Part shown: positions 29,801 through 41,255 of the stretch, one piece after another
Numbering within the stretch: position 1 is the stretch's first letter
How the letters are laid out: every line of letters begins with the position of its first letter
Made by a program: the position numbers and the translations under genes
DNA from: Ceratodon purpureus
Lineage: Eukaryota > Streptophyta > Bryopsida > Pseudoditrichales > Ditrichaceae
Assembly: GCA_014871385.1 (NCBI GenBank)
Contig: CM026424.1
Span: 16,194,142 to 16,258,141 of the forward strand
Length of the DNA stretch: 64,000 nucleotides
Direction: 5' to 3'
Notes under the pieces: model-generated
What the model was told of the DNA's origin: nothing
Database searches by the model: none
What the model saw: the letters and a program-made list of their open reading frames with translations, nothing else

Positions 29801-31588
29801 AGATATTGTCCGATTGGCAGAAGAAATGAAGCTTAGTTGCATTCAAGCAATCAAGATGGACGCTCTAAAGTCAGTGCGAGTGGAAAGCACTCCACATCAG
29901 GTTATTCAGAACGAGCCTATTGACGAAAGCACAACAAATACCAGACTCACTCAAGCTGGAACGGATGATGGTGTTGTTACTGACTTCATCTTGAATGAAC
30001 CAGATAATGTAGTTCAGAAATGCTCCAAGAAGCATTTGCGCGAGGGTGAGGACTTGGTGAATTTCTTTTCACTTCATTTCTATTTGAGAGGTTATAAGCT
30101 CTTGACGACACATCGTGCTTGGAATAAAATAGTTTGCTGAATCCGTTCACTTTCATGACAACGGCAGCTGTTGTGAAACTGCAAAATTTGGTGAGCTTGT
30201 TGTGTTCATAAGTACAAAGTTAGCTACGATTTTAATGCTTTCCCAACTATTGGATTGCACTTGCAGAGCATGATAGATCCCATTTCCTGGACGCCGTTCA
30301 TGACTCTAATTCATTTTGTTCACGTTGCACACGTACAGAATCTGCACAAGATTCGACTGAAGCAGCTGGTGGGCCAAAATGCGCTGCCGCCTCTCCTGTT
30401 TCATCTACCAGATCCAACGAAGAAAGTACATCAACCAAAAAGTTCAAAGACAATGGTGCTTATGCAAGCAGAAAAGCTGCTCGGAAAGAGGCACGCAAGC
30501 TGAAAACTGGACTCAAAAAGGCTGCCGAAGCGGACACACCTTATAAAAAGGGTTTCGCTCCTCAAAGCTTTGATCGAGTACTTTTGGACGCACCTTGCTC
30601 AGCTCTGGGATTAAGACCACGTTTGTTCGCAGGACAAGTGAGTCCACAGTCAAAAAGATTTTTAGTTACGATGGCTTATTGTGAAGCATTGGACGTACTT
30701 ACTTGCCTCTGTAGGTCAACTTATACCTTCGGTCATCGTCATATATTTGTGATGTACAGGAGACATTAGATGGTCTGCGGCAGCATGCAAATTACCAACG
30801 AAGATTAATTGACCAGGCAGTGCAGTTGGTCCGGCCAAATGGCACTCTTGTCTATTCCACGTGAGCACCTTCTTTACTGTACATGTGCATTAAGAATCAT
30901 CATTAGTATTGTATCCGTTCTAACTTATTAGCAGAACGAAATTGATCTTTCATCAACATGTTTAAGCTCTGTTCATGACATGAATGTTCTGTTGGCAGGT
31001 GCACTTTAAATCCTGGAGAAAACGAGGGTGTGGTTCGATATGCCCTGGACACCTACCCATTCTTGTCACTTTCTCCGCAGGTACTTCCGTACTTTTGATA
31101 CGTGAATCCGACTACATGATTTACATTGAATGCTTCCTTCTTTCAGAGTTTATTACCTCAATTTTCTTACAAAGGAGATGGCGCAATGTGTTCCAGCATC
31201 CAAAACTTGGAGGACCTGGTCTTGTTGGTGGAGACGACGTTTTCGATGGCGCAACTTACAGGTGATCATTTCAAGTCCTTGTTGAAAAATGTCCACTGAA
31301 GTTAGTCACGTCTTCGGTGCCAAATTGGCAGATTAACAGATCACCTTGCACTTATGCATTTGCGGATGTTCAACTCCAAGGCGGAGGTAGCCAGAGTTAT
31401 GCAGTATCAGAGCGCTTCCTCGTCTGATGCGTGTTTTTTTTCGTTGTTGTTGTTGTTGTTTGTTTACTCTGGGTGGCAGAGCATGGCTTCGGAAAGGAGA
31501 AGAAGACATGGTTCAACGATTCGACCCTGTAGGTCCCAGAGACACCATTGGTTTCTTCATTGCGAAATTTTGTGTTGCTGCTCATTGA
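26837..31588 (+). CDS. NSUN6: NSUN6-type tRNA cytosine-C5 methyltransferase with PUA domain
   Basis: NSUN6 uses S-adenosylmethionine to methylate cytosine 72 of certain tRNAs. Twelve exons join in frame (26837-26976, 27633-28023, 28449-28602, 28913-29050, 29266-29328, 29460-29581, 29796-30045, 30267-30637, 30760-30860, 30999-31080, 31197-31261, 31480-31588), giving 661 aa. Exons 2-4 hold the PUA domain ([29 protein letters not shown]). The SAM-binding motif is [14 protein letters not shown], the catalytic regions are [20 protein letters not shown] and [14 protein letters not shown], and the end is [11 protein letters not shown] long Ser/Lys-rich insert before the DAPC motif is also known in plant orthologues. 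The last exon and part of the last intron lie inside the left arm of a large inverted duplication, so the 3' end exists twice in the window. Confidence 0.93.
27290..27318 (+). promoter_or_regulatory. Cluster of telobox motifs in NSUN6 intron 1
   Basis: The plus strand reads GGGTTTAGGGTTTAAGG then TTTAGGGTTTA, four telomere-like units with one variant. Teloboxes mark promoters and leader introns of plant translation and RNA-modification genes. It could equally be a short interstitial telomeric scar. Confidence 0.5.
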
Positions 31589-33692
31589 AGCTGGTAATCG
31601 AATCTAGGTGTCGATTGTGATGTGTGAAGTCATGACGAAGCATCCATTTCGAAAGAATTGAAACTTCGGCTTTCATCACTTAATGTACTGGGAAAACCTG
31701 AGGCAATGGATTGTAGCAAATTTTGCAGCAGCCGCAGTGGGGTGGAAGTGGGATGCCTTAAACTTGCAGAGAACTTGTACTGGTGCATTGCATGCCATTC
31801 TCAATATAGACCAAACCGAATAGTGATATCGAGTGGATAGCACAGGAAATGATTGGCATAAGTAACTTTTGCGAAAGATTTTGGATATCACCAATCACTT
31901 GGTCAAAAAGGGGCGGTGGCGCAGTTGGCTAGCGCGTAGGTCTCATAGCTAAATCGAGAAATCCTGAGGTCGAGAGTTCGAGCCTCTCTCGCCCCATACT
32001 TTTTGTTTTTTTATTTATTATTTATTTTGATTATTTAGCAACAACAATATTTCGTATTTGTAAATAGCACGAGAATCATATAGTAAAAATTAGCCTGAAG
32101 TACGCTCTAGGGAGCTCTGCATCATATCTTATACTAGATTAGAAGGACTACACCTCGCTTCATTAAATGTCAATGCAACCTTTAGAGATGCATCCATTTC
32201 TCAAGGAATATTTTGCTCTCACTTGCACTTGATTCTAATTGGCTATGAGAGGCTTGATTTGAAGAGAAAGTTGAATTGGGAGTTTGTTTAAGAAGCCAAG
32301 CTTTGACAAACACAAGCACAAGTATGAGGCTTTGTTGGATTGTATTAGTAGAATTAGGTAGCAATCACAATAACTAGATATAGGAAAAATAATAGAATCA
32401 TGAACAACTTAAACACTCAAATATGTTTTTTGGCACACTATGCTACCCCCCATCCATTAGAACAATAGAAGGTAGGTTTTGCAAAAGGCCTTTACCATAG
32501 AAAAATGATATATGGGAAAACAATGATATAACTACAAATAAAGGCCAAGATCATAGAAAGAAACCTTTATGGACAAGGAAACGAAACCTCTCAAAACCTC
32601 TCAGCAAGAGTAGTACAATGTAGTTATAGGACCCATTATTTATAATATGGATTGATATCTAAAAAAATGAATTTACATATGAGTCATTGAACAATATTAA
32701 GACGAAGAAATTATTAAAGCCAATTTGAAGACAAAGGTGTGAGAATCATTTCTTTATCACTACTTGGAAGGCTATTGAAGATCTTATGGATCTATAGAGA
32801 CTAAGACACAGTATGTTGAAACTAACCTATAAACATTTGCTATCAACAATGTTATCTATATTCTACATTGAGGCCATTTGTACTTTACAAATGTCAAACA
32901 ACATGACTTCTTTCTCCTTTCCCCCTAATCCCTCCCCCCTCCGTCTCTTCCATGCCTTTTCCAAGGTTCTAGAAACTCTGAGTGTGATCCAAAATTTTAA
33001 TAGAAGACAATATTCATAAAAAAGATTGGAAAACATTTTTGACCTATCATTGAAGATTTTTTCTATTAAAATTAGCTTATAGTAGAAAGATGATGAATAT
33101 TGGTGATAAAATAACACAAAAGATATGGTAGCATATTATCATACTACCACTATTTCACCTATCTGCAGGAACTAGCACTTAGACCATCAAATATTCTAAT
33201 GTAAAACCATAATTCGCTTGTAATATCTCTTGGATTTCTATGTTATACATGTGACATTATTTGGTCTTTATCCTAAAAGAATTTGCATCACTAACTCTTT
33301 TAACTGCTCAAATAGTAGTCTTAATCTTTGTAAAGTGTTGATCTTGTTAGTGTTGTTGTTTCTAGGCCGCTTTTCCTATTAGTTTTTTAACACATTATTT
33401 TTTATAATGTAAAATGAGTGAAAATGAGTGTGCTACTTTGACATAACGAAGGCGACCATCAATTCAAATTCCATCAGGAGACCGCTCCAAGGCGTTGACT
33501 TGTCTCATTCCATCCATATATTGCAAGATCCATTTATTCTATCATCGATTTTTTTTGTTGAATTAAAGTCTCTCACAGTGATCCATTGTGCTTTGGATAG
33601 AAACGTTTAGAAAGAGCCTCTCAAAGAATTCCTTTCATTTTGAAGTCACCATTAAAGATTCCAAGCTTAAGGGGTAGGTTGAGTACCAAACT
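31358..33692 (+). repeat. Left arm of a 2335-bp near-identical inverted duplication
   Basis: Every base compared pairs with a base at 72402 minus its position, so the two arms align with no net insertion or deletion over the whole length. I saw only two substitutions (near 33580 and at 33685), so identity is above about 99.5 percent. The arm contains the end of NSUN6 intron 11, the last NSUN6 exon, a tRNA-Met gene and 1.7 kb of AT-rich spacer. As the rest of the NSUN6 gene adjoins this arm, it is the original copy. Confidence 0.93.
31910..31995 (+). tRNA. Elongator tRNA-Met (CAT), with 13-nt intron
   Basis: An 86-nt gene. The acceptor stem GGGGCGG pairs with TCGCCCC, the D arm has AGTTGGCTA, the anticodon CAT is at 31944-31946, a 13-nt intron (31948-31960) follows the anticodon loop position 37, and the T arm is GAGAG-TTCGAGC-CTCTC. 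Plants are known to carry an intron in elongator tRNA-Met. A TTTTT pol III terminator starts at 32000. An identical gene lies in the other arm. Confidence 0.95.
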
Positions 33693-34311
33693 TATTTATT
33701 GGCTTCAATTAAAATTGATTATATAGGAGTTTGATGTTAAGTTTGTGACCTTTTTGGTAAAAAGATTTTTGTTTCTCCTTTGACCTTATTGTCTGATGCA
33801 AAATTTGAGTCGTCATTCAGTAGTCTTAGTGGCCCTAGAAGATTGAAAAGGTTATTAAATCCAAACAATATTTTGCATTATGAAGGTATTTATGAAGTAG
33901 AATCACATCTAGTATGGAATTACTATGAGAAAAAATGATTCCTAAATAGAATGTCATTCCAAACTCCTTTTGGACTTTGTTCTAAAGCATAGTCATCTTG
34001 AATAACTATGATGATGAACTTAGGTACTTTTATCATCAAAACTAATTAATGGTAACTATTTGTCAAAGTTGTGAAGTTCCATGTCTTGTATCCTCTGTTT
34101 ATTGGGCTTAGTTTTAAGAATAGAAATTGGATCTTAAGGTGTAAGGAGTGCCATAAACATCTTTTTGTTTGAGTAGAAAACATGTATATACTAAGCTCCT
34201 ACAGATCATCTTATTAAGCTACTGAATTTCTTCTAGGACTTTTTTATCTACTTGTCATATCTTGTGTTTTCAAAGACCATATCAATTATGCTTAGAGCAT
34301 CCCCAATAAGT
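33693..34311. other. Unique spacer between left arm and LINE tail
   Basis: About 620 bp of AT-rich, non-coding DNA resembling the adjoining arm but absent from the right copy. It ends at GAGCATCCCCAATAAGT, directly before the LINE tail repeats, which is therefore one side of the LINE target. Confidence 0.6.
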
Positions 34312-40813: not shown

Positions 40814-40922
40814 TCAATGAGCAGCAACACAAAATTTCGCAATGAAGAAACCAATGGTGTCTCTGGGACCTACAGGGTCGAATCGTTGAACCATGTCTTC
40901 TTCTCCTTTCCGAAGCCATGCT
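40814..40922 (-). pseudogene. Duplicated last exon of the NSUN6-type gene
   Basis: The exon copy keeps its acceptor (GGTGGCAG at its 5' edge), full frame and stop, ending [15 protein letters not shown]. No upstream NSUN6 exons occur on this side. It lies in the same orientation as, and 334 bp beyond the stop of, the MOSC gene, so a read-through MOSC transcript could splice into it. Alone it cannot make a methyltransferase. Confidence 0.85.
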
Positions 40923-41255
40923 CTGCCACCCAGAGTAAACAAACAACAACAACAACAACGAAAAAAAACACGCATCAGACGAGGAAGCGCTCTGATACTG
41001 CATAACTCTGGCTACCTCCGCCTTGGAGTTGAACATCCGCAAATCGCGTACGCAAAATTAGGCAGAGTGGATTGATAATGTAGGTCACGATCATCTGATC
41101 AGGGCCTGTCTTATAGATATCCTGCCTTACAGAAATCCAAATTTTGATTTCTACCCGACTTAAGATGCTTTCGGAGTCTATTATGTAGATTTAAGGTCGA
41201 TCTGTTGATTCTACACCGATGACTATTACTTTGGGAGTGTGTGCTTCAGGTTTTG

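What the first reader, a model, noticed from the sequence alone, without database searches (positions are those of the whole stretch)
31358..41044. Near-identical 2.3-kb inverted duplication hinged on a LINE
Two 2335-bp arms align end to end with no net indel and only about two substitutions seen, separated by 5.0 kb. The left arm is continuous with the NSUN6 gene, so it is the source. The right arm's inner edge meets the LINE 5' end at the base where the LINE is truncated. This suggests that LINE insertion or repair of its 5' end was coupled to copying of nearby flanking DNA in reverse (template switch or fold-back repair). The high identity means it is recent or kept alike by gene conversion. 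An assembly artefact is the main alternative.
Basis: partly seen in the sequence, partly recalled or inferred. Interest (0 to 1): 0.75.

Follow-up and report, generated by a model that had tools for sequence, protein, structure and literature searches.

The report
Moss tRNA genes inside mirror-image repeats
The mirror-image repeat is real, but it looks like one of a set in this moss-like genome in which tRNA genes sit in near-identical inverted copies that appear to keep overwriting each other, rather than a one-off accident caused by a jumping gene.

Summary
Arms 31358-33695 and 38707-41044 are inverted copies with 3 differences in 2338 bp.

The interpretation changes. Each arm carries an intron-containing tRNA-Met gene (isotype read from sequence). 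Other inverted tRNA-Met pairs in this genome lie in near-identical arms: 2792 bp at 100%; about 3.0 kb with 1 mismatch; at least 1.3 kb with 1 mismatch; at least 466 bp at 100%. All 8 inverted pairs sampled around other tRNA genes share flanks, 7 of 8 at 97.8-100%.

Arm identity is not a clock. Two sibling palindromes have outer remnants about 10% diverged beside nearly identical cores. Two copies of a 22-kb mobile element carry the window's outer junction, 2% diverged, while the window arms differ by about 0.1%. Arm-to-arm gene conversion explains both.

The LINE is a broken piece, lacking both ends, from a family that can insert inside tRNA-Met genes; 13 bp matching that target span its 5' junction.

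How the inverted duplications form, and whether the LINE triggers them, stays open. The species (probably Ceratodon purpureus) is inferred.

The parts
31358..33695 (+). left arm of the palindrome: 3' end of NSUN6, tRNA-Met, intergenic DNA
   Evidence: apart from the right arm, the tRNA stretch and the NSUN6 tail, one search listed no other match in the genome
38707..41044 (-). right arm, inverted copy, 3 mismatches
31910..31996 (+). intron-containing tRNA-Met (CAT) gene in the left arm
   Evidence: ARAGORN (type not called) and Rfam RF00005, 48.6 bits; CAT anticodon read from sequence
40406..40492 (-). identical tRNA-Met gene in the right arm; the two genes point at each other
33696..38706 (.). 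unduplicated spacer between the arms
34400..38636 (-). LINE ORF2 piece (endonuclease, reverse transcriptase), broken; lacks about 0.76 kb at the 3' end and about 2.9 kb at the 5' end relative to the 7.9-kb relative at C2
   Evidence: Pfam PF03372, PF00078; stops and frame changes
38699..38711 (-). 13 bp identical to tRNA-Met anticodon/intron sequence CTCATAGCTAAAT, spanning the LINE / right-arm junction
   Evidence: same site as the LINE insertions at C2 and C9b
34285..34399 (.). 115-bp repeat with a short tandem unit, matched 93% at two other places, where the LINE 3' end would be expected
31533..31587 (+). end of the NSUN6 coding sequence (reads ...[12 protein letters not shown] stop), inside the left arm; inverted copy in the right arm
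   Evidence: read by eye; NSUN6 name from PDB match 5wwq to an upstream exon, E 6e-6
41045..43502 (-). right flank with a MOSC_N-domain gene; copied together with 40809-41044 in two copies of a 22-kb mobile element

Best explanation
The feature is a tRNA-gene palindrome: two inverted copies of a tRNA-Met neighbourhood around a 5-kb spacer, one of a recurrent set in this genome. The arms stay nearly identical because they convert each other (recombinational copying between arms), so their identity does not date the duplication. SHOWN in sequence: the arms, the tRNA genes, the recurrence, the sharp identity steps at the edges of two sibling palindromes, the diverged copies of the outer junction. 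INFERRED: gene conversion as the cause; that the duplication arose by a fork-stalling or break-repair template switch next to a strongly transcribed Pol III gene; that the LINE belongs to a tRNA-targeting family whose old insertion in a tRNA-Met gene was caught in, or cut by, later rearrangement of the spacer.
For: Recurrence: of 27 tRNA-Met loci, 14 lie in inverted pairs within 20 kb, where 0.04 close pairs of either orientation are expected at random. Sibling arms: C7 2792 bp 100%; C9a inner 3.03 kb with 1 mismatch in a global alignment (BLAST counts 2 in its inner 1364 bp); C9b 704+130+503 bp with 1 mismatch; C13 466 bp 100% (C9b and C13 arms run into the end of the stretch read). All 8 inverted pairs of other tRNA genes sampled, of about 10 seen, share their flanks. 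Conversion: C9a outer 486 sites have 55 mismatches; C7 has an outer 106-bp remnant at 90.6%, on one side about 700 bp away from the 100% arm. The window's outer junction is present in two mobile-element copies whose shared stretch differs from the window at 53 of 2650 sites (C6) and 51 of 2563 (C4b), the outermost 22 arm sites left out, while the window arms differ at 2-3 of 2338. About 47 arm differences are expected at equal rates, about 16 if the element copies evolve five times faster. The two arms agree at all 3 arm sites that differ from the copies.
Against: One genome, no population data, no reads. For the window, the argument rests on the copies descending from this junction; 9 of the outermost 22 arm sites differ, so the edge has changed since. 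Some siblings could be fresh duplications: one direct tRNA pair also shares 307 bp at 99.7%. The pattern is not strictly tRNA-specific: U6 shows 3 inverted and 3 direct close pairs among 24 hits, and weak U2-like hits show 3 inverted pairs. A tRNA-Ala tandem array (31 of the 40 rows, itself capped at 40 of 107 candidates) shows direct duplication too; counted copy by copy it would outnumber the inverted pairs.
Confidence: 0.74

Rival explanations
1. LINE-coupled origin: reverse transcription at the target and faulty repair of the LINE 5' end copied flanking DNA in reverse, making the right arm in one step.
For: The right arm's inner edge adjoins the LINE 5' end at 13 bp of the family's target site. 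Pieces of the family lie in the spacers of 3 of 4 larger tRNA-Met palindromes read (window, C7, C9b); at C7 a weak LINE match also lies in the arms. Insertions in tRNA-Met exist at C2 (7.9 kb) and C9b (1.4 kb) with 17- and 16-bp target duplications.
Against: The window LINE also lacks its 3' end and has 5 stops and two frame changes. C9a and C13 showed no match to this LINE in the stretches read, apart from tRNA sequence. At C2 the insertion keeps target duplications on both sides; at C9b it sits in only one of the two mirror tRNA genes, so it came after the palindrome or was lost from one arm. The first 12 of the 13 bp also occur at 3684, apparently by chance.
Confidence: 0.12
2. Recent duplication only: inverted duplications of tRNA neighbourhoods arise and vanish often, and the observed arms are young; no conversion.
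For: Arms of 97.8-100% at most loci tested. A direct tRNA pair also has 99.7% flanks over 307 bp.
Against: Steps from about 10% to about 0% divergence at C9a and C7; diverged copies of the window junction.
Confidence: 0.1
3. Assembly artefact (palindromic chimeric reads or misjoined repeats).
For: Near-identical inverted copies are a known failure of long-read assembly (recalled); no reads were available.
Against: The effect follows tRNA genes; diverged outer remnants exist; the window's outer junction is present in two mobile-element copies elsewhere.
Confidence: 0.03
4. The arms are long terminal inverted repeats of one mobile element.
For: Inverted arms with other contents between them.
Against: One search listed no other copy of the arm apart from the tRNA stretch and the NSUN6 tail; the arms include the end of a host gene; siblings have their own arm sequences.
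Confidence: 0.01

Closest known systems
Gene-converted palindromes of human and ape Y chromosomes (Rozen et al. 2003, seen only as cited in passages of PMC5490193)
   Same: Inverted arms that convert each other, in DNA without a homologue to repair from
   Different: Here short arms (about 0.5-3 kb read), centred on tRNA genes, at many places on contigs other than the largest one
Palindromes of asexual animals: Folsomia candida (11 blocks) and Adineta vaga (17), passages of PMC5490193
   Same: Inverted duplications proposed to convert each other and slow decay
   Different: Those are collinear gene blocks; these are short tRNA neighbourhoods
Fission yeast centromeres with near-perfect inverted repeats and dense tRNA genes (passages of PMC10085805)
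   Same: tRNA genes together with near-perfect inverted repeats
   Different: Centromeric there; here inverted tRNA pairs were found on nine contigs (C1, C2, C3, C4, C7, C9, C11, C12, C13)
Dictyostelium tRNA gene pairs with identical anticodons, and its tRNA-targeting retrotransposons (passages of PMC8163159 and PMC5006619)
   Same: Local tRNA gene pairs and retroelements aimed at tRNA genes, in a haploid genome
   Different: TRE5-A inserts near, not inside, tRNA genes (passage of PMC3706591). Whether the amoeba pairs are inverted with shared arms was not checked
[quoted passage not shown]
   Same: Insertion at a fixed site within multicopy small RNA genes
   Different: The family here has endonuclease and RT domains and gives 16-17-bp target duplications in the tRNA-Met anticodon/intron stretch
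L1-mediated fold-back inversions in human tumours (recalled, no call)
   Same: LINE at the hinge of an inverted duplication
   Different: Here the LINE is broken and incomplete, and palindromes occur without a detected LINE

Membership tests
gene-converted palindrome | inverted arms over 1 kb with over 99% identity around a spacer | tested here: met
gene-converted palindrome | arms more alike than the age of the duplication allows | tested here: met
   window: junction copies 2% diverged, arms 0.1%, assuming shared descent of the junction; siblings C9a and C7: step edges
gene-converted palindrome | concerted change of both arms within populations or between sister species | not testable with these tools
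   only one genome of this organism is held
LINE-mediated fold-back duplication | LINE insertion with an intact 3' end at the hinge, same age as the arms | tested here: not met
   3' end missing against the C2 relative, 5 stops and two frame changes; the age itself was not measured
LINE-mediated fold-back duplication | LINE 5' end joined directly to the inverted copy | tested here: inconclusive
   joined at a 13-bp tRNA-Met match
tRNA-targeting LINE family | independent insertions at the same site in tRNA genes with target duplications | tested here: met
   C2 17 bp and C9b 16 bp at GGTCTCATAGCTAAAA; for the window copy only the 13-bp match. Against strict targeting: the 9.9-kb stretch with the C6:96.75M relative showed no tRNA-Met match
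transposon with long terminal inverted repeats | arms recur as a family elsewhere | tested here: not met

The most novel reading that the evidence does not exclude
In this (presumably haploid-dominant) moss, tRNA and some U6 genes are held in a genome-wide set of arm-converting palindromes that act as a self-repair store: when a tRNA-targeting LINE breaks one copy, the mirror copy can restore it. Palindromes C9a and C9b, each with one broken and one unbroken tRNA gene in mirror position, would be caught between attack and repair. LINE cleavage would itself supply the breaks that drive conversion.
Probability: 0.18. Interest if true: 0.88.

Novelty: new variant of a known kind. Interest (0 to 1): 0.66.

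Why it matters
How multicopy tRNA genes stay identical, and how a haploid genome repairs genes without a second allele, are open questions. A set of short, dispersed palindromes with measurable conversion edges would make both testable in a moss, a group with efficient gene targeting (recalled). It also warns that near-identical inverted arms should not be dated by their identity.

Tried and rejected
LINE as the hinge: set aside as the main cause once the siblings were found. Long-TIR transposon: no other copies of the arm. Dating by arm identity: rejected. Twelve-bp tRNA matches at 3684 and 19447 were inspected and taken as chance. U2 snRNA as a Pol II control gave a mixed answer: no close pair among the 22 hits of 100 bits or more, but 3 inverted pairs and 2 direct ones involving the 23 weaker, mostly partial hits (counted by eye); not resolved. 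Literature: in the listings no title or abstract start describes tRNA palindromes in a plant nuclear genome; this covers only the held open-licence library, and most listed papers were not opened.
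Full report
OBSERVATION. The inverted repeat is real: 31358-33695 against 38707-41044, 2338 bp without gaps, 3 mismatches, 5011 bp between. The mismatches all lie in the innermost 120 bp; the outer 2218 bp are identical. The genome is 362,488,568 bases in 151 contigs and the window is C4:16194142-16258141. A 110.5-Mb contig (C6; about 30% of the genome) fits the moss Ceratodon purpureus, whose sex chromosome is given as about 30% of the genome (PMC13120521, passages). 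That review lists 358 and 349.5 Mb for the two isolates, not 362.5, so the species stays an inference, and haploidy with it.

CONTENT. The left arm holds the end of NSUN6 (PDB match 5wwq for an upstream exon, E 6e-6; last codons read) and an intron-containing tRNA-Met gene; the right arm has the same tRNA inverted (ARAGORN gave no type, CAT is my reading). The tRNA genes point at each other. In an older relative of the locus on C8 (pieces 70-86% identical) NSUN6 and the MOSC_N gene lie tail to tail with 269 bp between the aligned pieces. I infer that palindrome and spacer were added here between two convergent genes. Apart from the right arm, the tRNA stretch and the NSUN6 tail, the left region matched nothing else in the genome.

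SIBLINGS. A search with the left region listed 38 places, 32 of them in the tRNA stretch. After joining halves of split genes, dropping two short fragments on C6 and one on C1 (a direct neighbour of a C1 gene), and adding the two window genes, I counted 27 tRNA-Met loci. Within 20 kb they form 8 inverted and 1 direct neighbour pairs, and 14 of 27 are in an inverted pair. Four other clusters were read. C7 has arms of 2792 bp at 100%, spacer 2461 bp. C9a has arms of about 3.5 kb. C9b has 704, 130 and 503 bp pieces with 1 mismatch in all. C13 has 466 bp at 100% plus shorter copies; ARAGORN calls its tRNA-Met-like genes Ser, the CAT is my reading. The C9b and C13 arms run into the end of the stretch read. 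For other tRNA genes, the 63 best of 18,830 candidates of the tRNA family and searches with Gln, Ala, Val and Arg genes gave more. A hand tally of same-type neighbour pairs gave 20 inverted (15 convergent, 5 divergent) against 5 direct. It counts the two C13 pairs apart, and three genes figure in two pairs. Dropped before that count: a tRNA-Ala tandem array on C9 (31 of 40 rows, all direct; 40 of 107 candidates were scored), two further inverted neighbours (C13 2193544/2201837, C12 4384363/4395868) and the direct C1 fragment. With the array counted copy by copy, direct neighbours are the majority. Of the inverted pairs seen (about 10) I sampled 8 with 150 bp on each side: 7 were 364-374 identical of 372-374, one was identical upstream but with indels downstream (328 of 419 columns). 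The one direct pair sampled shared 307 bp at 99.7%.

CONTROLS. 152,002 bases not chosen for tRNA genes (53.9 kb of them from the window) showed no inverted repeat of 80 bp or more at 90%, other than the terminal repeats of one mobile element in its two copies. U6: 24 hits with 3 inverted and 3 direct close pairs (by eye). U2: 45 hits; no close pair among the 22 of 100 bits or more, 3 inverted pairs among the 23 weaker ones (by eye). So the pattern is not limited to tRNA genes, and the weak U2 pairs are unexplained.

WHY CONVERSION. First, C9a: 55 mismatches in the outer 486 aligned sites and 1 in the remaining 3.03 kb (2 in the inner 1364 bp by BLAST), a step rather than a slope. Second, C7: an outer remnant of 106 bp at 90.6% beyond 2792 bp at 100%, with about 700 extra bases between them on one side. 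Third, the window: two elements of 22.3-22.6 kb with about 90-bp terminal inverted repeats (C6:83478461-83501042 and C4:17781344-17803668) carry a copy of 40809-43502, that is, the outer part of the right arm joined to the right flank. That they are transposons is inferred from the repeats and the two copies; target duplications were not examined. They differ from the window at 3 of 211 arm sites and 50 of 2439 flank sites (C6), and at 3 of 210 and 48 of 2353 (C4b); of the outermost 22 arm sites 9 differ. If the junction is shared by descent it predates the copying, yet the two window arms agree at these arm sites. About 47 arm differences are expected at equal rates, about 16 if the element copies evolve five times faster; 2-3 are seen. 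The altered last 22 sites, where the right arm now equals the left, fit a conversion that ran to the edge; that is inference.

THE LINE. 34400-38636 matches a relative at C2 (about 70%) and one at C6:96.75M (about 65%). The C2 copy is 7.9 kb with two long open frames and lies inside a tRNA-Met gene with a 17-bp target duplication; a 1.4-kb copy at C9b lies at the same site with a 16-bp duplication, in only one of that palindrome's two tRNA-Met genes. At C9a a separate insert of about 0.4 kb splits one tRNA-Val with a 17-bp duplication, the mirror tRNA-Val being unbroken. The C6:96.75M stretch shows no tRNA-Met match, so targeting is not strict. The window LINE lacks both ends of the C2 copy, has 5 in-frame stops and two frame changes, and at its 5' edge runs into 13 bp of tRNA-Met sequence and then the right arm. 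The simplest story is an old insertion in a tRNA-Met gene, later cut by a deletion or by the duplication. LINE pieces also lie in the spacers of C7 and C9b, and were not seen in C9a or C13.

CONCLUSION. The window feature is best read as a tRNA-Met palindrome kept alike by gene conversion, in a genome where such palindromes recur. The initiating event is not shown. [quoted passage not shown] breaks made by the tRNA-targeting LINE are the alternative. The palindrome as repair store is a hypothesis, not a result.

Noticed in passing
G000 C6:83478461-83501042 and C4:17781344-17803668 (L044-L049): An element of 22.3-22.6 kb with about 90-bp terminal inverted repeats and internal tandem arrays, two copies 96.9-99.0% alike by piece, that holds 2.7 kb of host DNA matching the window locus (NSUN6 tail plus MOSC_N gene piece).
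   Followed up: partly
L055 (C9:10496923-10498323), L006 (C2:6074451-6082370): LINE family inserted at one site inside tRNA-Met genes with 16-17-bp target duplications; the C2 copy has two long open frames.
   Followed up: partly
L053 (C9 near 7471.8-7472.2 kb): About 0.4-kb insert splitting one tRNA-Val in its 5' half, 17-bp target duplication; by eye its 3' end resembles that of the LINE family.
   Followed up: partly
G000 C9:5944969-6012518: tRNA-Ala tandem array with a unit of about 934 bp, at least 31 copies in direct order, in blocks.
   Followed up: no
G000 C11:9029224-9041851 and C1:3642361-3642932: tRNA-Gln genes that look split by inserts of about 12.5 kb and 0.5 kb, with overlapping ends like target duplications.
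   Followed up: no
G000 C2:22781418/22785830, C9:8504560/8508141, C2:23986017/23996464: Inverted close pairs of weak, partial U2-like sequences, unexplained.
   Followed up: no
window 23523-24446 (-): Open frame with an ISXO2-like (IS1595) transposase domain, a Merlin-type element by recall.
   Followed up: no
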